NCBI GenBank assembly: GCA_037576195.1
Contig: CM075104.1
Location: 5,958,775 to 6,022,774, forward strand
Reading direction: 5' to 3'
DNA: 64,000 nt
DNA from: Phytoseiulus persimilis
Taxonomy: Eukaryota; Arthropoda; Arachnida; Mesostigmata; Phytoseiidae
Part shown: positions 15,331-64,000 of the stretch, piece after piece
How positions within the stretch are numbered: position 1 is the first letter of the stretch
Layout of the letters: every line of letters starts with the position of its first letter
Program-made: the position numbers and the translations under genes
Notes under the pieces: generated by a model
Database searches by the model: none
Told to the model about the DNA's origin: nothing
What the model saw: only the letters and a program-made list of their open reading frames with translations

Positions 15331-15927
15331 ATGCTTTCTCTCCAGATAATGGCTGGGAACTCGTGTATGTTGAATCCGACTCGCTGGAAAATATTGGATG
15401 AATTCTCAGAGAAAAAAACCTACTCGTCGAATTCAAATATTTCATGCCGGGCATTTCATGGCACTCAGTTTCTTCGCAAGAACGAAACCTGTCTTCCTTG
15501 GAGATCTTTCCGGAGAGTGCTTCAGAATATCAACCCGAAGCCAGTTTCCCAGAGAGTAGAATGTTTCTTATTGCTCCTTTTTAAACCGATCCCCGATGAG
15601 TTGCGAGCGAAACGGATCCCGAGTAAACTCTCTGGCTGCAAACCGATTCCGACGATTGTTTCCTTCCCTTTCAAACACAGTTATTCTCGAAGAGACTGCC
15701 TAGAACGCGTACTTCCAGATCATCCAGGTAATCGCGACCATCGGTCGGCAAACCGACGGTGGCTCTTACCCGGAACTACTCCTGCAGCTACAGGATTCTG
15801 TGAATCTGAGGAGCGGACATCTTGGACATCCCTCGATAGTTCATATGTGTGTGCAGAGCACAGGAATGCCGCGCGGTGCGAGAGATTGACCGCAGATTTC
15901 GAGATTGGGTGCACTCTCCCCACATGA
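15331..15927 (+). CDS. Unrecognised cysteine-rich open frame (198 codons)
   Basis: A long plus-strand frame with about ten cysteines spread over 198 codons. The last segment could also be an exon: TGCAGCTACAG at about 15780-15795 would be an acceptor, and GTAATC after an upstream CATCCAG would be a phase-matched donor. There is no convincing signal peptide at the ATG. It sits about 330 bp upstream of the first SARAF-like gene on the same strand, but shares no cysteine spacing with it. It may be a chance frame. Confidence 0.2.
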   Translation: MLSLQIMAGNSCMLNPTRWKILDEFSEKKTYSSNSNISCRAFHGTQFLRKNETCLPWRSFRRVLQNINPKPVSQRVECFLLLLFKPIPDELRAKRIPSKLSGCKPIPTIVSFPFKHSYSRRDCLERVLPDHPGNRDHRSANRRWLLPGTTPAATGFCESEERTSWTSLDSSYVCAEHRNAARCERLTADFEIGCTLPT

Positions 15928-16253
15928 GCGCTTTGAGGGCTCTCGGGGAGAATGAAAACCTCGATTTAATTTGTTTAAAACACGAATACCCGAAAGAATC
16001 GTCCTTCTTCCGTTCGCGGTGCCTCGTTGGTGAACTCGGTCTCGAAGCCAGGCTGATGGTGCTCTTGCGGTGGTACTCTCAAAGAAGCTTGAGTCGGGAA
16101 GAGATCCGGATTCGCTCTCTCTCCCCCATATTTTCGGTACAAGAGGCGTGTCCGAGAGGAACAACGTATATTGAATCGCGACCATCTGTTGATTGCGCGA
16201 ACAACCTCAGGCCGGATACTTCTTCGAGCGTAACGTGCAGTCGAGAAATCACA

Positions 16254-17503
16254 ATGATCTCTAAATGGTTCTTGATGACTCTGGCAGTGAGCCGTGCCTC
16301 CGTCTCAACGAAGGGCGAGCACGCGGCTGCGTCATCGAGAGTGGCGGCAATTGAAAAAGTTGCTCCACATGGATTTTGGAGTTTCATGAATGCTCTGTCC
16401 TCATCCGACCGAATATCTCATTCCATGTGTTCCAGTTAGTTTGTTGACTCTTCCATCAGCTGTCGTGCTTCCAGCTCTCTAAAAGCAGGCTCCCTTCGAG
16501 CCCACTAGTTTGATGAGATGTTGTTTCCACGAACATGACACCCCTCAATTTCTGGTTCGATTTTACAGTAACTCCATGGTACGGGGATCTGATGGAACTG
16601 AGGATGATGACGTTCGTGTCCAATGCTACCGGCTCGATGCTCTGCGACAACTGTGATCGAAGTGGCCTTCCCTCAGAAGTGATATGCCTAAACAAAAGTA
16701 GGTTCCTCTGCTCGGGTCGTATCCTTGACTCCGACCCCAGGTTTGCACCAGGATTCGCGCAGGTTTGATGACGGCGAAGCAGACCGAGTGACGGCTCTCC
16801 CACGGAATCATGAAAGAATCGAGACTATCCATTGGCTCCTTCTTACCATTTAAATCACACAGGACAGTGAGAAGAGTCAAAATCACCTTCCTCATGTTTG
16901 ATTCATTACCAGATGTGCTCAAAGATGCCGTCGTACCTCTGTGGGCGTGCTCTGCGGACTTCGGCGGGCTGGATTATGAAGTGGACGATGCCTCAGTGGA
17001 CTGTCACCGTCCCCGAAAATCGCCACACTGCTTCGATCTACGTTAGTTGAACACTCGCCATGATACAAAGCACGCATCCGTAGTCCTTGTGGGAAACTCC
17101 GAAACCGGCGAATTCAAGCTCCGTTGGATTGATCTCACACGAATAATCAATCCATGAATTCAAATTCACAGGCACTTGCCGGCTGAGTTTCTCCGTGAGA
17201 GAAACCGGTGCGGGCCACGCTCAAGATATCGCGTCCCTGCTCGTTATCGCGGTGATTGGCACAGTTTTCTTCCTGTGCAGCTTCGCGGGGAGTCAGCGAC
17301 CACCATCTTCTCCCGGAACGATCTCGCTCCCTGAGATTTCGACGAGCCGCGAAGCTCCTGTGGACTCGAGTTCGGATCGCCCTGACGAGAACCCTTCCAC
17401 TTTCCTCGCGATTCCCGACAACTCACCTGCGCCCTACAAGACACTGCACGATTTCCTCGATGGTCCGCCTCCGAGCTACGAACAAGCCGTTAATATAACC
17501 TAA
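16254..17503 (+). CDS. SARAF-like membrane protein, copy A (PPxY tail)
   Basis: Predicted exons are 16254-16434, 16569-16697, 16913-17041 and 17172-17503, all phase 1, giving 256 residues. SARAF (TMEM66) is an ER membrane protein that damps store-operated calcium entry through STIM/Orai. The model shows a signal peptide (MISKWFLMTLAVSRASVST). Luminal cysteines follow: a CDNC pair, a third in EVIC, LWAC, VDC, HC and RTCRLSF. A membrane segment lies near residues 166-186. The Ser/Pro-rich cytosolic tail ends in GPPPSYEQAV, a PPxY motif like the proline-tyrosine tail of known SARAF. Family assignment rests on the cysteine framework, the xxC-x-L motif before the membrane segment, and topology. 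The exon 1 donor (GTTAGT) is the weakest junction. The stop codon overlaps an AATAAA. Confidence 0.65.
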
Positions 17504-17507
17504 TAAA
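17502..17507 (+). terminator. Poly(A) signal overlapping the stop codon of SARAF-like copy A
   Basis: The sequence TAATAAA contains both the TAA stop (17501-17503) and AATAAA. If used, the 3' UTR would be only a few tens of bases. This is sequence inference without transcript support. Confidence 0.4.
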
Positions 17508-17850
17508 GTGGAGTTCCTTCTCGAGAGTTCCCTCGTCATCACTTCTCTGTCTTTTTGAGATATGAACGAAATTCCGATCTGGAGCTTTTCCACTACAACA
17601 CTGACGGAACGCAGCGTGCGGTTTCGAGTGTCGAAGCATTTTGAGAGAGTCAATGGACAGTATTCGCGCTTGTTTTGGAGAATCTCTCGGGTCACCCACA
17701 GCACAGAAAAACGGCCAAGCAGCATCCCCACTTTGCAGCTCAGCATGGGCTCTAGACGCGGAACGCCTGCGCAATCGGCGTAAAGTTTAACGAGACACCA
17801 CTCGGCAACGATCTTAGCGGAAACAGAAAAAAAAACAGCTGTGTGTACAT

Positions 17851-17856
17851 TTTATT
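17851..17856 (-). terminator. Poly(A) signal for SARAF-like copy B
   Basis: TTTATT on the plus strand is AATAAA on the minus strand, about 165 bp past the copy B stop codon. Confidence 0.45.
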
Positions 17857-18021
17857 GTTGGGTTCGATTTCCGTTCATCATTTGCCGTCTCATTCCCGTG
17901 AGTGGTTATAGCTCTTTTCAACAACCTTGGAAGACTCCCCCACGCTAGCATCGTAGTTTGGGGGGCGTAGATTCAGGGAGGAACGGCCGGTACAACCTGG
18001 ATCTGGTATGACAAGGGAGCT

Positions 18022-19167
18022 TCACTCCTGCTGATCCATGGACCGAAGAAACTTTAGTCGAACGCAGCAGAAATAATAACAAAGAAAGCCTATCATGGAG
18101 AATAAAAACAGTAAACCCAGGATTGAAGCCACGACGAACCACCATGGCGGGACAGGCAATTTCGAGAAGTATAGCGCTCTAGATTGCCGCCTACGAGACG
18201 TGAGCTGTAAGATGCAGGACCCTGTAACGAAGACATTTAGAATGAGTCGGGCTTCAACGTGGACTCCGATCGATTAGCGTGAATCTCTATAAGAGTTGAT
18301 ATCTGTTCAAATCTCCTTTGTATAACCATTCTTCTTGCAATTCAGATGAGAGACGAATTTCAGCCCGTGGTCATCGCACGCAATTTCCACGGAGTCGATC
18401 TCGAAGTCTTCGTTGGGAAATCCGGCGTTGCACTGCCAAGGCACGTCGCCATTCCGAAAAGCGTCTGCTGGAATCAAGCGAGTGATAAGGGGATGAACGA
18501 TATTATCACGTTGGATGGCTGCTCTTCTCCCGAGAATCATCATTGGATTCCCGGGAGACGGGAATGATCGATCCACTCGAGACTGGGGGTCACTGATGTA
18601 GAATTCACGTTCGAGTCACAAGCATGACGTGGCACTCATTCATAGAACGGCAGAGCGAAGTCTTCTGAATACTCACTCGATCGAGTGCAGTTCACTGAAG
18701 CTGGTACTCCACTTTCAGCGCACGAAACGCACATGAATCGATTCTCAGGTCTCGCGCCAGTTCTCGAGCTGTTGTTCTCGGAGAACGTGAGTGAGAGAGT
18801 CGCGTTCAGGTCGAAGCATTCCGCTGGAGTTGACAGAAAAAGCATGTTCATGCCGATTCGCGAACATCACCACACTTCTTCTCCCCATTCGCTTCTGAAT
18901 TTCACACTTCATGGGATCACACGACTGCCGCGCCGCCCGAGCTGGACACGTCTTCCCCCGAGACCTCCCCCCCATGACGAGCTTCCATGATCTCGAAAGC
19001 TCTGGAAAGCCGAGCAAGGCGACTCTCAGAGGATTTTAATGACTGTGAGCTCGATACCTACGTTCACAGCGATTCCCATCCTTCGTCGACTCCCAGAGAC
19101 TCGTGGCTGTTTTGCACGCACCAAAACCGCATGAGCACAGTAGCGCTATCGCAATCTGGATTTTCAT
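18022..19167 (-). CDS. SARAF-like membrane protein, copy B (short tail)
   Basis: Minus-strand exons from 5' to 3' are 19062-19167, 18677-18823, 18327-18464 and 18022-18221, all phase 1, giving 196 residues. The signal peptide is MKIQIAIALLCSCGFGACKT. The luminal part has CVSC, SVNC, PWQC, IAC, NC and NGSCILQL, the same order as copies A and C and as SARAF. A strong membrane segment lies at about residues 157-183 (PPWWFVVASILGLLFLF). Only about 13 residues follow it, so the long Pro/Ser-rich tail known from SARAF is missing. Exon 2 is 147 bp, identical in length to exon 2 of copy C. The donor of exon 3 (GTTATA) is poor; I chose it because it restores the NCxxxGSCIL junction seen in copy C. Confidence 0.65.
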
Positions 19168-19169
19168 CG

Positions 19170-19924
19170 GAGCTCGAACCTCATGGGTGAACGGGTCACC
19201 AGTTACGTAATGAGAGCGCAGAGCTCAGTCACTAATTCTGGAGCGCTCTTTCTGAGTCATTGTTGGATCACTTCGACCTGAAATCCGTGAATCTCATTGA
19301 GCGGAGCGACGAATCCCTCGTCAAACGGAGAGCTGCTCGACGCTGGAATCCAGCCGGCTGGGACTTGATTTTTTTTTCGAATCTATTGGTTGTTCGCGTT
19401 TCCGGTACGAAATATCCAGATATTCACCAATCCATCGGGGATGTGGCTCATGGGTTGAATTATTCGAAATCGACAAAAACCCATCATCGGCGGCGCGTGG
19501 CGACCACGAAGCAGCGTCTCGCATTCACGCAGAATCGTCTGCTGAAGGGAAGGAAATATTCAAGGGGCAATCTTAATCCCTAGCTGGTGGTCCCACGGAA
19601 TCACTGGAGAGAGGATTTACGCAAAGAGGCTCCACTATCAGGACTGGAACCAAGTTTTACGATATCCGACAGGTTCCGGGGCTCCGCCGCCAACATAATG
19701 ACATCGACCGGCGGCTTCGATGATGCACAGGGGAGGAATAAGCTCGTGGTCATCCCGATTTCAGTTGACCAACTTCTACAGAGCTCTGGACGAGTATCTC
19801 GCTTTGCCCTAAGGATCCTCGTCGACTTAAGTGATTATGGGTTCCGTGCGACAACGCTCGCTCGCTCGCTTCCAGGAGGCACAACCGCCAGCTCAGGCGT
19901 TGCCAAATATTCAAACGAAGCAGA
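19170..19924. other. Spacer between SARAF-like copies B and C
   Basis: Copies B and C face away from each other here, so promoters of both probably lie in this 750 bp. No TATA box or other clear element was seen. Open frames are short and unconvincing. Confidence 0.4.
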
Positions 19925-21074
19925 ATGGTCTCCGTGACGGCCCTTCACCTGATGGTTTCGTTAGGATCACTCGCTTCCGGTGTCGAAGGAGCTCTCACCT
20001 CTCCTCCCAGACTGAGCTTTCCCATCAGAAGATTCCTGGTGCCCAGCCCTCCGGTGTCACAGACCGGTTGCGGAGGTGAGTCGAATCATTCGTCCCAGGG
20101 AGTTCGGGACAAGCACGTTGGGAGTTAGTTCCCGGTTTTGAGTGCCGAAGCATGGACTGATCTCCCGAAAAATGATCCCTGTTGGAAGACGCATCAGATG
20201 GATGGAGGGAGAGCTGGAACGGACTCTTATTCACGAGCTGTTGATTCTAGCCGAGCATCTTTACTTGAACGTAGAGCCGCGACTGCAGTTTTCGGCCAAT
20301 CAAAGAACAACAACACGATCGGAGAACGAGTTTGAGCTACAATGCAGCAGCTGCGAAAAGAGCGGCGTGCCTGCGTTCGTGAACTGTTCCAACTCAAGTG
20401 AGTATAACAGCAGTCGGGAGGCGATTCTCCCGAGCGCGTGATGTCATGCTTTGATGCCGAAGGCAGGCTCAGAAGCCCAAATCGAACTTTTGCATAGATA
20501 TGAACACTTATTGTTCTCTCTGCGTGGATCGAGCAGATGCCGACAGAGAAAAGTCAGCAGAATGGTTCTGCGAAGGTCCCTTCCCAGATGATACCTACGT
20601 GGTTGTATCTCCTGAGATCGACTGCGAATGGGACGACTCCTCGCCCACAAACTGCGTAATACGGGGTAGGTCGATCCCCCTCGATTATGATGGCTCCGAA
20701 CTGGCAATTAATACTCGCGTGGTCTCGCCCACTTGAAACTTTGGGTTTCAGGTTCTTGCATCCTGAGATTTTCCTCGGGCTCCGCGGGCACCGTTGACTG
20801 GCTCCTCATCTTCCTCCTCTTCCAAGTAGCGGTGATGTTGCTCGCATTTGGAATCATCGAATCCAGGAAGAGAGTGAAAGCGTTGCTATCGAGTCGGGCC
20901 GGCCACTCGAAGCCCGATCTTCGCATTGACGTCATTGAAGCCCAGCGTCGCGGCAGGGAACAAATCAGGCGCTTGCATGGGACGCTTCCCACAACGACGA
21001 ATATCTTGAACGGCGAAGCGGCGCCGCAGGAACCCCGCGCCATGAGTGCGCATGCTACCGTTTGGCTGGAATGA
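19925..21074 (+). CDS. SARAF-like membrane protein, copy C (charged tail)
   Basis: Exons are 19925-20075, 20251-20397, 20537-20665 and 20752-21074, all phase 1, giving 249 residues. The signal peptide is MVSVTALHLMVSLGSLASG. The luminal region carries ELQCSSC, PAFVNC, EWFC, IDCEW, NCVIRGSCILRF. The last motif closely matches the RGSC block that precedes the membrane segment in SARAF proteins, and is the best single link to that family. A membrane segment lies near residues 159-178 (WLLIFLLFQVAVMLLAFGII), followed by about 70 basic and acidic residues (ESRKRVKALL onward) without a PPxY motif. Splice sites are good (GTGAGT, GTGAGT, GTAGGT; TTTCAG at the last acceptor). Role in calcium entry is inferred from family only. 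Confidence 0.7.
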
Positions 21075-21079
21075 GAGAG

Positions 21080-21955
21080 CCGCACATGAGCACACGAGCT
21101 GGCAGCGAGCCGAAGCGGGAGCCTATAGGAACTGACCACAACGTCAGCGAAGTCTCGGGGTTAGACCCTTTGCTTGGCGATTCGAGCTCAGGTGAGATGT
21201 CCATCATCATCTCACCGCTCTCAGGTGCACTTTGAAAGCTGCAGGCCAGCTGTTGCTGCCCCTACTGGAGCAGTCCTAGTGGAAGGAGCTGATTCAGCCG
21301 CTGAGAGCTAACCAAGATCGAAAGTAACTGAAACACCTCATTCGGAAAGCAACAGCCATCAAATCGTCTCTTCAAGTCAATTGTAACCTCGAGCGATTAT
21401 CACCCGATCTCACACGGAATCAACACCTTGTCTTTTCGAAAGTGGTGATGGCTCGGAGCTGGGTGAATTTTCTTATTGAGTGCTCGGCCGTCTCGGGAGT
21501 TTCGAACCTTCGCCCGAGTCGGCCTCCATCGGCGGACTTCGGGGGCCTCTCTGCTCGAAGAAAACGTTGTGCGGACGCTCCTATCGGCTCCGTCGACTGC
21601 CATGGAAACTTTAAGACAACTCGGCCCAGATATTGCCAGACTTCAGCGTTTTGCGAACGTTAGCCGACGGATCATACAAAGTTGAGGACGTGACTCGAAA
21701 GTCTCGGACTAATATGTCACGCGGGCGTTCGAAGCTGTATAACTATCGAATGCGGCCGCAGATGATGCGTGATGCTGGAACAACAGCACGATCGACACCG
21801 AGAGTATACCATCTCATACCCACCGCGCTTTCAGATTTTCATGATGTACTTTAGAGACCGACACTCCGAGGTTCGCGAATTGCGATTTCATTTATCGCTT
21901 CTCCCATGTCGATATAACTGGACAGCTGGTTTTCTCTGCGGAGAACCGCCTGCAG
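21080..21955. other. No recognisable gene
   Basis: Lies between SARAF-like copy C and the first retrotransposon remnant. A plus frame at 21476-21685 is protein-like in places, but has no known domain. Confidence 0.4.
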
Positions 21956-32459: not shown

Positions 32460-33726
32460 ATGGACGTGAATGTGATCGATGAAGATCCTCCTGTTCCGAT
32501 TGAGCTCCAGCGGATCGCGGAGTGCGAGCTGAACGAAACACCCCAGAGTCGAGTGCAATGCACCAAGGCTCTCAGGCAACTCCTTGAAGAGGATGAAAAA
32601 CTCAAGTCCCGGGTTGACGACGCTTTTCTGCTGCGGTAGGTCTGCGTAGGAGCCAAGTGGCGATGCGAAATAGCAGCGAGAAGTAAACGACCCCCGTTCG
32701 GAAACAGCATCACCTGCAATGACCTGATCAATGTTCTTTCTCTCCTAGGTTTCTCCGTCCCGCAAAATTCGACCCTCAGAGAGCATGTAAAATGATCCGT
32801 CGCTACTACAAGATGAGGGCGGACGCCCCGAACATCTTCAAGAACAAATATACACCCAAAGATCAACTCTCATCATTCAAGTTCAATCTTTCAACCGTCT
32901 TGCCGCACAAAGATTCCCAAGGCCGGACTTTGTTCCTCTGTCGAGCCGGCGCCTGGGAACCGAGCAAACTCGCCAAAGATGACTTCTTCATGTCGGTCTT
33001 ATTGATGATGGAACTCTCTATTCGGGATGTACAAACACTCATCAAAGGTAGGCAGATGTCGCATTCGTCAATCGTCGTCCACCTCCTGACTGGCCCGATG
33101 ACGGTAGAAGTGTCGTGCTCAGCCCAGGAAACTGTAACGTGGCACGCACGGGTAACATTGAAGAGCGACAGGAAAGAAAACTCATCGGTCGATCGGATTT
33201 CCAGGAACCGTGGTCATCATCGACATGGCGGGACTTTCTTGGACGCACATCCACAATTTCACTCCGTTGGATCTCAATCGCATCGTATCGATGGTGCAGG
33301 ACTGCTTCCCGTGTCGCATCAAAGCTATTCACATAGTGAACCAGCCGAAGATCTTCTCCATCATTTGGAACATCGTCAGGTGAGATTGAAATGAAATTGG
33401 GAATTTCATGGGAAACTTCCATGAAAAGCTCGCGTTTTTTCCGTGTGCGATGCGTCCGAACATATGACTAACCCGCGACCCTTCCTTCCAGCCAATTCCT
33501 GAGCTCAAAAATCGCAAGCAGGGTGCACATGCATGGACACAATCTGACAGAACTGTACAAACATGTCGACAGACAGCTACTTCCAGACATTCTCGGCGGA
33601 CCGAAACCTGTTGATAGTTCCCCTTGTGTGAACAAACTCTTGGCCTTGAATGATGCTATTTTCGAAGACGGGGCCTATGGTTACACAGATTTCACGGTTA
33701 ATTACAGCCCTATCAAAAGATCATAG
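32460..33726 (+). CDS. CRAL-TRIO lipid-binding protein (alpha-tocopherol transfer protein-like)
   Basis: Four exons (32460-32635, 32749-33047, 33205-33379, 33492-33726) give 294 residues, the usual length for soluble CRAL-TRIO carriers. The N-terminal helical domain (about 1-75) has VDDAFLLRFLRPAKFDPQRA, the standard RFLRARKFD-type block. The CRAL-TRIO pocket follows: GTVVIIDMAGLSWTHIHNFT, then CFPCRIKAIHIVNQPKIFS, then KIASRVHMHGHNLTELYKHV and LLPDILGG. These proteins move hydrophobic ligands such as tocopherol or retinoids, or phosphoinositides, between membranes in the cytosol; the ligand here cannot be told. All junctions are canonical GT-AG with matching phase. A plausible AATAAA lies about 220 bp downstream. 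No break is seen, so the gene is probably functional. Confidence 0.9.
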
Positions 33727-38316: not shown

Positions 38317-41300
38317 ATGGAGGCAATCCGGAAAGTTCTTCAGGACGGCGACGATTATGATCTGCCCACCGATGGAGCTGAGTGTCTCATCGAAGTCATT
38401 GAGGACGCAGATTGTATTTTCCCGGAGAAAGAGGTTTGTCACTGAGGCTGAATGCTGTTCATAGAACTTTTCGCCCCCTCGCGTAGCAGCGGAGCGCTTG
38501 CTCCGAGGCCATAATGAAGGTCGGACTGTACTACACAAAGGTCATGGCCGGGCCACCCTATTTTTGATCCTGGCGAAAACTTCCATGACTCCTGGTGTCT
38601 GTCTGTCCTCGACAACCGGCCTGTGGCTGTCGTCCGCCTGGTCGATCGATCATGAGCTCTCATCATGCGTTATTGCGAGGAAAATACGAAGCACAGTCGG
38701 AGCTTGGAACCTGTGGAGCAGGTCCTGGCCGCTACGATTCTCTCCTGTTCACATCGTATCATTCGTCTTGAATAATTAACAGACTCGGGATGCGGACCGG
38801 AGCAGTTCTCTTGGAAAATCCATTAGCAGAGCGGAAAGTTTCCGGAAAAAAATGACCACGGAAGTCTCACCTCACGAAGAGACTCTACAGAACTTTCACA
38901 CAAAGGCCAGCCGCCTGGAAAACGCCCGGAGAGCCCTCACACATTGCTCGGAATTCACGCGGTGCTATTGAATAATTCATCTTCTGCCGATGTGTCGAGC
39001 TTTTAGAACAACTCGCTGCGAATATAGGCGAGAAGCGTGCGAGGAAATCGGATTGATGTCTGAGCTGGAGGTACAACAGCTTCTATATTGCGGCGGATTC
39101 TTCGGAAAGGATCGATGCCACGAATCTGATCAATGATGTACCTGGATATCCGGATTGCCGAGTCATGGCTTTCCATTACCAGCAGATGGGTTCCAACCGG
39201 CCGGTTACGCGGGGGTGGAGCGGCTCACGCGAGTCGATGAAATCGGAGGGGATGTTGAAACTCTCAGACTCGGGATTTCGCATCTGATGGAAATGAAATG
39301 CCGCACTGGTCGAGTCCACAGTATCGTTCCGCCGGGATCGTTGATGTATTGACTCGGAGGTTTGCTCGGAGCGTATTCTCGTCTCGTTCTGACTCGGTCA
39401 TCGATCGGAAATGAATTTCAGCGCATTAAGCCATAACGTGCGAGCTCCGCGAACTGAGTTGGCGTCGCGTGTCCGGATCTGAACTCCCGTGATAAAGGGT
39501 TCTCAGCATGAAAGGGGCTCTGAGCATCTCTAAGCATAAGGTTGATGGGAGGGCAAGCATTGTTTGCGCTCCGATACCCCAGAAAGGAATCCTCCTTTTG
39601 TTATTAGAACTCGTTCCTTAGTCTCGGGGGTCCGGGTCTCGGGCATCGATCCTCAATCTCAGTGCGACAGACTAATGGTGGATCGGCTGGCCGTCGTTAC
39701 TGAATCGATGCATCGGAAGAAGCGCGGAACGTCGTCAAAGGACCCGGGGGCTGGCCCGAGTTCAACTACACTGAATCGTGTCGGGGAATGTGGAGTCCGA
39801 GTGCGTTTAGAGCCCGTCGATAGATCGCGCAGACCGAACTCGTCGCTTGATGATGTTCGGAGCGAGAGCAGGAGAAATCAAGAAGGGCCCGCAGGGGAGT
39901 CGTAGGGGAGCAACGTTGTCGAAAGGTGCTGGCAGAGTGCAATGTTGCCAACTGGTTTTATCCTGAGCTGCGGAACTATTCGTGACTGCAACGGACCCTT
40001 CAACGACCTCAGGGACCTACGGGGCGCGGTTTGAGGTCATGAATATACTACAGAACGACTACAGCAGACTACGCCGGGTTGGTGTGTCAGCTTTTGCTTG
40101 GGTCAGCTCGGCGCCGGAGGACAAGTTTTGCGGCGTGGGGTGCCCTCTTCCGGATGGCCTACCAGGTCCTGTGCACACGAGCAAGAACGCACGCGAACAA
40201 ACACTTGGACGCAGATAAAACAGAGGCAAGCCCGTCACCGCTTCGCGACGAGTATCGCCACGCGGAGACTCGCTCCAAACGTTTCGTAGGCGGGCTCGGA
40301 CGCTGGAAGAGACTGACTGTGGGCCGCCGTCAAACAAATCCCCACTTCAGATCTTGCAATGCAATTATTCCAGCAAACTTTTAATGTATTCCTTGTCGCC
40401 GACAGACGGTCCTGACCCTTGGAGATGCCAGCACAGACGAGAGGCTCGCATTGGAACAGGCCATCATGAGGATGAGGCCCGGGGAAGTGGACGAAATCAG
40501 TATTGGAAACAAGACTACAACATTCAAGCTGGTCGCTTTCAACAGTGGCCTCAAGGTCAGCCCGTGCTCTGTTCGTTAGCTCCAACATATGATCATTCAG
40601 TTTGGGAGCGTCTGCAACAGATCTGTGTCTCCTCTCAGAAACGCACTGAGCCGAATAATCCGCAGTGTGGGCGAAAATCTTTTTCGCCACTTGTGATTAG
40701 TTCCACTCGCACCCAACTAAACTTTACCAACCCATGCGAAAGGTGTTTGAAATGAGTACAACCGAGAAGTGGCGACTCGCGAATTGGCACAAGGACAGCG
40801 GGGTCGCTTTGTTCAAGGATGGAAAACTCGAATGGGCCTTCAGGAGGTTTTCGTTGGCACTCAAGTATATCATATCCCTAGCGCACGACGTCCCGGCGAG
40901 CGAGCACGACGATGAGGTGAGTTGAAGGCTTTGCCGCACGGAAATCGAACAGTAGCCGAGCACAACTCGATTGCAGCTTGGAAGGATTTCCTAGGGCTCA
41001 ACGACTTTAGACGTCGAACGAGACGATCCTCCATATTTTCGAAGACGCAGGCATTCGGATGCGGCTGGAGGGATCCCGAGTCATGATGAGACGCGTCTTC
41101 ATCCGGAGAATGAAAACTGGCCTCCGCTGAGAGCTGGTTCCGATTGTCGGTCGATGCTCACACATACGTGTTGAGGCTCTGTTGATGCACGAAAACTACG
41201 GCGACTTGCGAACATGTGGCTTGCTCCGCATCGCGGAGCGTGCAGCCTGGCGAGGCTCGGATCCGCGATAAGCGATGACTATCGGACATTCAGTCTCCTT

Positions 41301-42600
41301 TTCGACCTCGGAGGCAGAATACACTCCGAGCAACGTTGGGCAATCCTAGCTGGGAAGGAGGGCGGGAGAGATCCAAACTGCAATACGTGTCACGGGAAAA
41401 TCGCGAAGACGACTTAGCGACGAATTTCAGATTCGCTATTCCAATGAACCTAAAGCTCCTGAGATTACCGTTCCAGGACATGAATATTAACCGGCTTCGA
41501 ACGCTTGTCTATTTGAACCTGTGTGCCTGCCAGCTCAAAGTGGAGAGTTTCGATTTCGCCGTCGTGAACGCCACGAAGGCCATAGAAATCGATTCGAAGA
41601 ACGTGAAAGCTCTTTTCCGGCGAGGAACTGGCCTGATGCATCTGCAAGTGAGTACCCACATTCCTGCCTCGGTTGGTTGAGTACGATACGTGGCTGCTTC
41701 CTCCGCTTCCCCTGTCTCCGCGCGTGCTGGCAGTAGTCGATTCGGATGAAATATTCATGAGCTTCTTTTGTGCTTCACGAATGGCTGTTTCCTTTGAGAG
41801 CGGTGTCCAAGGTTAAGCTCGTACGGCGGTGGCATCGGCCGTCTATCTCGGAGCTCTGGGACGACCATCGCGAGCCATTCCTCCCCCAGTCGTCTCAGTT
41901 CCGACTCGAATCGCGATCGAAGGAATTCCGGATCGTTCATTTCCGATAGAGCTTCAAACTCGGCGGAACGATAACATTCAACCCGGAGCGGGAGGAGCGG
42001 AAACAAAATTTTGCTCGGGAAGGAACCCTGCTTGCTTATCGTGCGTCCTTCATTGACGGGAACTTGGCCGAGCGCCAGCTTGGCTCTGCTCGCCAAGTCC
42101 AGATCCAAAAGGTCTAACAGGAAGTGTCTTTCTCTCCGGGGTGGAAGGAACGCGACGGCATCCATCGTTCAGTGCCCTGCAAAAAAAATAAACTCCGCGA
42201 TGAATCGCATGCAACTCGGAGTTTAGACCTCACGGACGGGTTTTTGCCTCTGTTCCTCCTCCGCTCTGGCCCTCGGCTCGCCGTGCTTGAGTCCTCTCGC
42301 AACTATTGCTCTGAGTGATGGAATCCAGATGCCAGAGCTGCATTCCAACCATCCTGAAAGCCATCCCGGCCGCTAGATTCAAAAGAAAAACACGTATCTT
42401 GGCTCTATCAACTCCAACATATCTCTCTCTCTCTCTCCTACCTTTTTCAGGAGTACGAGAGATCGCTGGCCGATCTAAGACTCGCCCTTGAGCTAGAGCC
42501 TGGGAACCCTCAGATTCTAACGGCTCTTCAGGAACTCAAGTGTCGAATGGGTTCACTCGATGCCAAAGTCGCAGCCGCCATGAAGAAGATGTTCCAGTGA
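38317..42600 (+). CDS. FKBP-like TPR protein (FKBPL / bride-of-doubletime type)
   Basis: Five exons, all phase 0: 38317-38433, 40406-40555, 40701-40916, 41477-41647 and 42451-42600, giving 267 residues. Exons 1-2 form a shortened FKBP-like domain: IRKVLQDGDDYDLPTDGAEC, then LEQAIMRMRPGEVDEISIG. The central flap and the aromatic residues that bind FK506 are absent, so it is probably not an active prolyl isomerase. Exons 3-5 carry tetratricopeptide repeats (STTEKWRLANWHKDSGVALF, ATKAIEIDSKNVKALFRRG, SLADLRLALELEPGNPQIL), the kind that bind Hsp90 tails or kinase partners. Such proteins act as co-chaperone scaffolds in the cytosol. Intron 1 is about 2 kb, long for this window. An additional exon upstream of 38317 is possible because the frame stays open. 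Confidence 0.82.
42422..42437 (+). repeat. (TC)8 dinucleotide run at an intron end
   Basis: Pure TC repeat just upstream of the last acceptor (CCTTTTTCAG) of the FKBP-like gene; it doubles as polypyrimidine tract. Confidence 0.8.
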
Positions 42601-45099: not shown

Positions 45100-48000
45100 T
45101 CAACCAAACTGAGGGTTTCGTCTACGCGGTCGCTGAGTGGTGGGCGTCTCGGTGAGCTCCTCATCTTCGTACTCGTACTCTGGAGCTTCGGTTTGAGCAA
45201 CGGGTCGGAAAGCTGGAACAGCTTGTTGGGTGGGGGCCTGGGGCGTGGGCGGGGGCCTCGTAGCCGGCTGCGCGGGGACTACCTGGACGGGACGCGCCTG
45301 GGGACGGGGTTGCGCCTGGGGACGAGCGGGACCCCGTTGAGGGCGGGGCTGGGCCGGCTCGGATCTGGGAGGGGCCTGGGAGCGGGACTTTCCATCTTCT
45401 TCTTCCGGGGCTTCTGGAGGAGGCTCGCAGCCGGCGACCGTGTCTGCCAATTCGCACTTCAGGGTTTCAGCGTTGAAAGCGAGGCCGGCGGAGCATCGTT
45501 GGAGACGAGGATATCCTCCGACACAAAGCCAATAGCGGGCGCAGGACTTCTCGATGGGAATGGGGCCGTTGGCGACGTCTTTGCAGATGGCTGGAAGGAG
45601 AGGAGAACGAATCGTCGGAGTTTGTTCGACCCACATTCGGGCGGAGGAACGGGAGAGAACCCCGAGATGTTTCCAAAGATCCAACGAGCGCCCAATCGTT
45701 GAATTGCGTCGTTGGTCCGATCGTCGATGAATGGTCGCGAGGTGGACAGCCGCGAACAGATGTCCGAGAACTAGAGCTCGATGGATACTCACGATGCTTC
45801 TGGCAATCGGGAACGTTGTCGGGCCAATCACAAGCGTGGGCGGCGTCGTTGTAGAGGAGCGAGAACGGACACTGTTGGTTGGTGGCCGTGCCGTTCCAGC
45901 ACTGCCAGTATCGAGTGCATGATGTGGCATGGGCGAAGATTCCGTACTTCCAGTGACAGTTATCGGTGCTTTCAGGGCTTTGGCCCATTACCCGGTTGTC
46001 TTCGTCGGGACATCCGACCTTGTGCGGGTAATCACAGTTCTCCAGCAGACCCTGCGGAGTTGGTTCCATGAAAGATGGGAACTCCCAAATGCGCTCTGTC
46101 TACGAGATTCACAGGAGCTTTACGAACCTTTTTCTTGCCGGCGAATGCCAAGCCGTTCGGACAAGCCTGCAGAACAGCTTCTCCATTTTGACAATCGAAG
46201 TAGTAATCGCAGTACTGATCGTGCGGGAAGAGGCCGTCGGGCTTTTTACAATTCTTGTTGTCCGCCGCTCTTTGTGCCGACACTGCAACGGAACAGAGTT
46301 TCTCAATTAGGGGATCCCGATCTGAAACTCGCGACGAAATCAAGCAAACGAGCGGCACCGGCTGCTCGCCGAAAGGCCCGCCGTCTAAGGCAATAAAGAG
46401 TTTTCGATCTGGAAGAAGCCTTCGGAGCTATTGCTTCGTTTTTGTGCGGCAACATCCGGTCCCTGAACGACGACGATAACTCAATCACTCCCACGGAATG
46501 TGTCGATAAAAAACTGGGCTTCGGCTCCGAGTGGCTGACAACGAGCGCATCAAGTGTGTCCAGGGTGACCGGGAAGAAATCGCTCACGGAACAAATTACT
46601 CCGGCCGAACTAAGGGAGTCATGCAAATCGGTGCACAAGCCAAGTAACCAGAGAATAAATTACGGCCCGGTGCCGTTCGGATATCGAGCAAGGAGAATAC
46701 ACTGCGGGGAGAAGAAGTCTTCTCGCACATGGACCGGCCGCGGAAGCCGTTTATTTCTTTCAACAGATGTCGAAATCTGTCACAAAAGATCAGCACCCAT
46801 CGATTTTTGCGTTTGACAGTCGCTTCCGGTCGGGAAGTTTTGCAACGCTTGTCGTTGTAGGTAGGGGACCCGTTCACCCTCCTTCAAACTGGCGGTCCCT
46901 TTCACTTGAGGCCCCGCGGAGGCCTCTGGCCAGAGCACAGCGAAAGTGACGATGACCCGGTTCATGGGGCCCGAGTTGGGGTCAACGTTGGAGGCCCTCA
47001 AAACTTGGGGCCCCGGTTCCGACCCGGCCATCGGAGCACGTCCAGAAATCCGACGAGGAGGCCCAACGGCGTAACAATGCGCCCGAGCGAGAAACTCGTG
47101 GCACCCTGATGTTATTTTTCGCTTTGCCTCGCTCTTCCGTTGCCAACAAGGGGTCTGAGGCGGAGATTTTCGCTCAGAATACAATTTCCCTGCACAGGGA
47201 AATTTCCAGAGAACACCATCCAAAGTGGAGTGGAACAGGGTTTGATGTCGCTTAGTTTTGAATGGATTTGCCAAGAAGCGCTTTGTATGAACTAAGATGG
47301 GCGGTTGCCGTTGGATGGAACACTTTGTTGTAGTCCATTGTCATAGAATGAAAAATAAAGTTGAGCGACAACGGAAAGAAGAGAAACAGGAAGCTGGGAG
47401 GGACTTGTCATGAACGCTCCCCGTCGTCGCTGTATGTTGAAACTTTCGATTGTCTAGAAGTGATTCGAGTTTTACAATGAAAATGTGGAAACCCGAGTTT
47501 CGACATTCGACCCGTTCATCACGAAGCGATATGGAAGTGTTGTGCTCGAGATAGGGAAACGGTTATTTTCTCCATCGTTCGGTCACACCTCGTCGGGACC
47601 ACGTAGGTCGACCACTTTCGTGGGCTCGACAGCCTTCTGTGGGTAGAGAGCAACAGACAGATGTGTTCGGGTCCCCTCAGCTCGTGACCGTTAGCTTCCT
47701 GCTGGTTCATACGTGAAACGACATCTGCTCCGCGAGGGGTCATGTTGCAGAGATGAGGTGATGGCTGAGGCCGGGTAGCCGGTTTTCCGCGCAACAATCG
47801 AGCGAGCCTCGAGTTTCCCGAGGGGCAAGCGAGCGTGAGCTTCGGCGGACAAGCAAGCGAACAGACGACGAAGGCTGACGGCGCCAGGAAAAAGCCGCCA
47901 GCTCAACAACACTCACAGAGTTCTCGGATGTCACTTCGGAAATAAGGCCTGGCTCGATGAGCTCGACCAGAATAAGTCAACGAGCGGTGAGCTGAGGCGG

Positions 48001-60917: not shown

Positions 60918-64000
<3,083 letters not shown>

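What the first reader, a model, noticed from the sequence alone, without database searches (positions are those of the whole stretch)
16254..21074. Cluster of three divergent SARAF-like genes in +, -, + order
Three four-exon genes share a signal peptide, the same order of luminal cysteines (CxxC, VxC, WxC, C, C, xxC-x-L), one membrane segment, and phase-1 introns at every matching position. Overall residue identity is low, so the duplications look old. Known SARAF is usually described as a single gene that limits store-operated calcium entry; a local expansion in a mite-like genome would be new to me. The central copy is inverted, which argues against simple recent tandem duplication.
Basis: partly seen in the sequence, partly recalled or inferred. 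Interest (0 to 1): 0.8.

Follow-up and report, generated by a model that had tools for sequence, protein, structure and literature searches.

The report
Three divergent SARAF-like genes in cluster
A 5-kb stretch of an arthropod-like, perhaps mite, genome holds three old, divergent copies of a gene that seems related to SARAF, a membrane protein that limits calcium entry into cells; the copies keep its cysteine-rich core but appear to lack its dimerisation strands and its STIM-binding tail.

Summary
At 16254-21074 three four-exon gene models (A +, B −, C +; 256, 196, 249 aa) have nine GT-AG, phase-1 introns at matching positions, and codon-position identities that indicate selection on protein in each pair. 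B and C are closest and lie head to head. Only short, weak DNA repeats remain, so the duplications look old.

The SARAF reading is partly supported. C matches Pfam SARAF at E 8.4e-5, B at 0.013, A not at all; none reaches the gathering score. A luminal profile of the three has human SARAF (6o2u) as best PDB hit, E 0.0021. Matches stop at the luminal cysteine core.

The copies share eight luminal cysteines against six in the human core, leave 14-25 residues between the last of them and the membrane, so little or no room for the human domain-swap strands, and have short, unalike tails. I read them as non-swapping SARAF-fold paralogues, probably in the ER; a role in calcium entry is inference. 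Whether a canonical SARAF exists elsewhere could not be tested. New variant of a known kind; interest moderate.

The parts
16254..16434 (+). Gene A exon 1: weak signal peptide, ends Cys-x with phase-1 donor GTTAGT
16569..16697 (+). Gene A exon 2: CxxC and VxC cysteines
16913..17041 (+). Gene A exon 3: WxC, DC and extra cysteine (C143)
17172..17503 (+). Gene A exon 4: C-x-L cysteine, membrane segment, 72-aa tail with PPSY (17468-17479), stop
19062..19167 (-). Gene B exon 1: signal peptide, ends Cys-x, phase 1
18677..18823 (-). Gene B exon 2: CxxC and VxC cysteines; donor GTGAGT
18327..18464 (-). Gene B exon 3: WxC and following cysteines; acceptor CAGCAG could be used at either AG in frame
18022..18221 (-). 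Gene B exon 4: GSC-x-L, membrane segment, 19-aa tail, TGA stop
19925..20075 (+). Gene C exon 1: signal peptide, ends Cys-x, phase 1; donor GTGAGT
20251..20397 (+). Gene C exon 2: CxxC and VxC cysteines; donor GTGAGT
20537..20665 (+). Gene C exon 3: WxC and following cysteines; this acceptor chosen because it aligns with A and B (an in-frame AG at 20496-20497 would add 13 codons)
20752..21074 (+). Gene C exon 4: GSC-x-L, membrane segment, 71-aa tail, stop
19168..19924 (.). 757 bp between the start codons of B and C (head to head); candidate shared promoter
   Evidence: coordinates; no promoter test made

Best explanation
Three paralogous genes from old duplications of a SARAF-type gene. Each encodes a type I membrane protein with a signal peptide, a luminal domain built on the SARAF cysteine core (six shared cysteines plus one extra conserved pair that could form a fourth disulfide), one membrane helix and a short cytosolic tail. 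The luminal switch strands that let human SARAF form a domain-swapped dimer have little or no room here, so the copies should be non-swapping. Most likely they sit in the ER membrane and modulate store-operated calcium entry as divergent SARAF variants. A, with a PPSY tail like one of human SARAF's NEDD4-ligase sites, would be the copy under ubiquitin-controlled turnover; B and C would differ in tail-dependent partners. Shown by sequence: gene structures, paralogy, luminal homology, short juxtamembrane spacer, divergent tails. Inferred: the fourth disulfide, monomer state, ER location, any effect on calcium entry.
For: Gene models; matching phase-1 introns and codon-position pattern; Pfam SARAF hits for 2 of 3 copies; human SARAF luminal domain as best PDB hit from C alone, from the full profile and from the luminal profile (E 0.014, 0.0056, 0.0021); hhalign of the luminal profile with the human segment, E 0.00028 but probability only 41%; shuffles reaching the observed score against the human segment: C 0 of 2000, A 6 of 2000, B 14 of 2000; cysteine, membrane-segment, spacing and tail counts. 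Human switch (beta 9-10; deletion of 150-165 is monomeric), three disulfides, and STIM1 binding by the C-terminal region: PMC8391525, sections read. PPXY motifs and NEDD4-family ligases: PMC7504102, abstract and passages.
Against: No copy reaches Pfam's gathering score. Against the human segment, spliced A (47) and B (41) lie near the background of unrelated window ORFs (best 43, then 40), and the best raw ORF, C's exon 3, scores only 46; A and B are tied to SARAF through C rather than by themselves. The cytosolic part of SARAF, which binds STIM1, has no counterpart in the profile match. No expression, location or calcium data.
Confidence: 0.5

Rival explanations
1. SARAF-derived but refunctioned: the three are fast-evolving cysteine-rich membrane proteins (cell surface, salivary or reproductive) that kept the fold and lost the calcium-entry role.
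For: Luminal-only match; short, mutually unalike tails; identity of only 28-36% between copies over the luminal and membrane part.
Against: PPSY tail in A; no evidence of secretion or surface location; matching gene structure kept.
Confidence: 0.33
2. Not SARAF: an unrelated family of cysteine-rich type I proteins whose cysteine spacing resembles SARAF by convergence.
For: Sub-threshold Pfam scores; PHD-finger profiles and chains also give weak hits, showing that cysteine spacing alone can score.
Against: SARAF is the top Pfam hit for B and C and the top PDB hit in 3 of 3 searches; C beats 2000 of 2000 shuffles of its own composition; the alignment runs through VxC, WxC, the mid cysteine and RGSC-x-L in order.
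Confidence: 0.12
3. Partly degenerate cluster: one or more copies (B first) are decaying, or exon models are partly wrong.
For: B has a TGA followed by 43 in-frame codons carrying PPNY; C exon 3 and B exon 3 have alternative in-frame acceptors.
Against: Nine usable splice-site pairs and open frames in all twelve exons; protein-level selection pattern in every pair; B has a complete membrane segment before the stop.
Confidence: 0.05

Closest known systems
SARAF / TMEM66 (Pfam PF06682, formerly DUF1183; human luminal structure 6o2u)
   Same: Type I layout; luminal core whose six cysteines align in order (C, the profile); W-x-C and RGSC-x-L; A has one PPxY motif in the tail.
   Different: Two extra conserved luminal cysteines; CxxC where human has a six-residue spacer; little or no room for the beta 9-10 luminal switch; tails 19-72 aa without match to the rest of the SARAF profile; three clustered copies; below Pfam gathering score.
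Monomeric human SARAF mutant lacking residues 150-165 (PMC8391525, section read)
   Same: Lacks the domain-swap segment, as the copies seem to by nature.
   Different: It keeps the human cytosolic tail, which the copies do not match.

Membership tests
SARAF (PF06682) | Score at or above the curated gathering cut-off (30.8 bits) | tested here: not met
   C 22.8 bits (24.2 for its luminal part), B 15.6, A no hit
SARAF (PF06682) | Luminal cysteine core homologous to human SARAF | tested here: met
   6o2u is best hit of the luminal profile, E 0.0021; C alone 0.014; shuffles 0, 6 and 14 of 2000 for C, A, B. Strong for C, weak for A and B alone
SARAF (PF06682) | Signal peptide and one membrane segment (type I) | tested here: met
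   Hydropathy only: membrane segments 2.57-2.88; N-terminal maxima 0.88 (A, weak), 1.52, 1.56
SARAF (PF06682) | Luminal switch, beta strands 9-10 (human residues 150-165) | tested here: not met
   16, 25 and 14 residues between the C-x-L cysteine and the membrane segment in A, B, C; in human the switch starts about 20 and ends about 35 residues after that cysteine (counted on a recalled human sequence). B has room for a few residues only
SARAF (PF06682) | Cytosolic domain that matches the family profile and binds STIM1 SOAR | tested here: not met
   Sequence only: Pfam matches end at profile position 102 (B) and 121 (C) of 333. Binding itself not testable
SARAF (PF06682) | PPXY motifs in the cytosolic domain (human has two) | tested here: inconclusive
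   A has one (PPSY); B and C none within the reading frame; B has PPNY after its stop
SARAF (PF06682) | SARAF beta-sandwich fold | not tested
SARAF (PF06682) | ER location and slow inactivation of store-operated calcium entry | not testable with these tools
   Needs cells

The most novel reading that the evidence does not exclude
The lineage has turned the single SARAF regulator into a set of three non-swapping, four-disulfide luminal sensors with different tails, so that calcium-entry inactivation is tuned by which copy is expressed rather than by the dimer switch.
Probability: 0.15. Interest if true: 0.65.

Novelty: new variant of a known kind. Interest (0 to 1): 0.42.

Why it matters
SARAF's luminal domain modulates how calcium entry is shut off and its tail binds STIM1, but what the dimer switch does is unsettled (PMC8391525, sections read). 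Natural copies that keep the core but lack the switch and tail would be ready-made tests of what each part does, and would show that the regulator can diversify by local duplication.

Tried and rejected
Pfam on nine unspliced ORFs of exons 2-4 gave SARAF in 0 of 9, and one weak unrelated hit (DUF5478, E 0.068); only spliced B and C gave SARAF. A self-trained codon model collapsed mostly onto proline-rich runs and was dropped; a seeded model was used instead. No whole genome is held for the window, so a canonical SARAF elsewhere could not be sought. Scans for relatives in prokaryote genomes and viral contigs gave 34 and 108 pattern matches, 0 confirmed, as expected for an animal gene. Rfam (gathering threshold) and tRNA scans of the window were empty. 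A splice of plausible length that would bring PPNY into B's frame was looked for by eye on the printed sequence and none was found. The PHD-finger hits were taken as cysteine-spacing noise.

Literature: ten searches of the open library, nine on SARAF, TMEM66 or DUF1183 and one on the mite genome. No title listed there concerns SARAF duplication in mites, ticks or insects, but several lists were capped (20 of 1,046; 15 of 68; 15 of 49; 8 of 21). In two papers opened for the word it was an author's name; a paper on the evolution of ER calcium proteins does not name SARAF or TMEM66 in its text. Of the SARAF-plus-mite list I opened none, of the SARAF-plus-Ixodes list one. A mouse SARAF paper gave nothing on paralogues (passages). 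The human structure paper and the M. occidentalis genome paper are not held.
Full report
What is there. Each has four exons; the proteins are 256, 196 and 249 aa; introns are 86-238 bp; 9 of 9 introns are GT-AG and phase 1. I picked exon ends by eye so that frames stay open and copies align, so the shared phase is partly by construction. A and B are tail to tail (518 bp between stops), B and C head to head (757 bp between start codons), from the coordinates.

Is it more than chance? Yes. Luminal parts of the three align with z 14.4-27.4 over shuffles (0 of 5000 reach each observed score), and a profile of B and C alone finds spliced A at E 9.2e-10 (search space set to 1787), though A's single exon ORFs only at 0.037 and 0.058. 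Introns 2 and 3 share alignment columns 54 and 103; intron 1 splits the second codon after the same cysteine in all three. Identity is highest at second and lowest at third codon positions in 3 of 3 pairs. In a codon-usage test the proposed frame is best of six in 3 of 3 genes, but all scores are negative and the training ORFs had been picked with a model seeded by the cluster, so this is weak. No other copy shows among ORFs of 25 aa or more in the 64 kb (next profile hit E 1.6). Repeats of 20 bases or more in 15800-21600 are two direct families and three inverted pairs, 20-23 nt, 73-85% alike, so the duplications are old. B and C (36% over the aligned part, 44% over 110 aa by BLAST) are closer than either is to A (28-29%).

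What family? Nine unspliced ORFs of exons 2-4 give no SARAF hit in Pfam. Spliced C hits SARAF at 8.4e-5, B at 0.013, A nothing at E up to 1; the curated cut-off of 30.8 bits is not reached (luminal part of C 3.3e-5). In PDB sequences, C alone gives the human SARAF luminal domain first (E 0.014), the full profile 0.0056, the luminal profile 0.0021. hhalign of the luminal profile with the human segment gives E 0.00028 at probability 41%. Against the human segment C scores 75 (shuffle mean 26.5, 0 of 2000 reach it), A 47 (6 of 2000), B 41 (14 of 2000). Scores of 43 and 40 occur among unrelated ORFs of the window, so A and B are tied to SARAF through C rather than by themselves. I judge homology of the luminal core likely, about 85-90%.

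How do they differ from SARAF? Each copy has eight luminal cysteines in conserved places; B has further ones in its signal peptide and at residue 38. Six align with the human cysteines (C, the profile); the two at the end of exon 1 and just before the (R)GSC motif are extra, and a fourth disulfide between them is my inference. In human SARAF three disulfides hold a ten-strand sandwich, strands 9-10 swap to make the dimer, and the mutant without residues 150-165 is monomeric (PMC8391525, its section 7 read). The copies have 16, 25 and 14 residues (A, B, C) between the C-x-L cysteine and the membrane segment: too few for that segment in A and C and for most of it in B, if the residue numbers that I counted on a recalled human sequence are right. 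Tails are 72, 19 and 71 residues and unalike, while human SARAF binds STIM1 through its cytosolic part. Pfam matches cover only profile positions 29-121 of 333. The regulatory parts are thus missing by sequence, and I do not file the genes as full SARAF members.

PPxY. Human SARAF's cytosolic domain has two PPXY motifs (PPPY, PPSY) used by NEDD4-family ligases (PMC7504102, abstract and passages). A has PPSY at 17468-17479 near its end. B's frame stops at TGA 18024-18022, yet the next 43 codons are open and hold PPNY at 17964-17953, before an AATAAA at 17856-17851. Of 1376 open 43-codon pieces of the window in six frames 8 carry PPxY (pieces of the cluster itself are not excluded). A 43-codon open stretch is not rare: about 45 codons are also open after A's stops. 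This may be chance, a young stop, a sequence error or readthrough; nothing here decides.

How it may work. Best reading: ER type I proteins that modulate store-operated calcium entry without the dimer switch, A being subject to ubiquitin turnover. The anatomy is shown; location and action are inferred. The main rival is refunctioning away from calcium entry, which the unmatched tail makes serious.

Source and context. G+C is 51.9%; one published table gives 52% for Metaseiulus occidentalis and 30-45% for nine other arachnids (PMC5467014, passage). Of 20 other long or high-scoring ORFs scanned with Pfam, six had a hit at E 0.01 or better: three peritrophin-A (CBM_14), one chromo shadow, and weak CRAL/TRIO and TPR matches; these fit an arthropod. 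The species is not proven.

Novelty. The searches of the open library showed no report of a SARAF gene cluster in the titles listed (limits in Tried and rejected). Public eukaryote gene catalogues could not be searched, and these genes may already be listed there under a SARAF-like name. New variant of a known kind; interest 0.42.

Noticed in passing
17893-18024 (minus strand): Gene B's TGA stop is followed by 43 open in-frame codons that carry a PPNY motif, like the PPSY in A's tail and the PPXY motifs of human SARAF; possible readthrough, young stop, sequence error or chance.
   Followed up: partly
45103-46427 (minus strand): Three exon-size ORFs each with a chitin-binding peritrophin-A domain (E 9.3e-12, 3.9e-13, 1.2e-9), perhaps one cuticle or peritrophic-matrix gene.
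   Followed up: no
61592-62095 (minus strand): ORF with a chromo shadow domain (E 1.7e-17), HP1-like (name recalled).
   Followed up: no
32723-33391 (plus strand): ORF with a weak CRAL/TRIO match (E 0.0008, under cut-off).
   Followed up: no
41279-41677 (plus strand): ORF with a weak TPR match (E 0.006, under cut-off).
   Followed up: no
19168-19924: Genes B and C are head to head with 757 bp between start codons; a shared promoter could co-express the closest pair.
   Followed up: no
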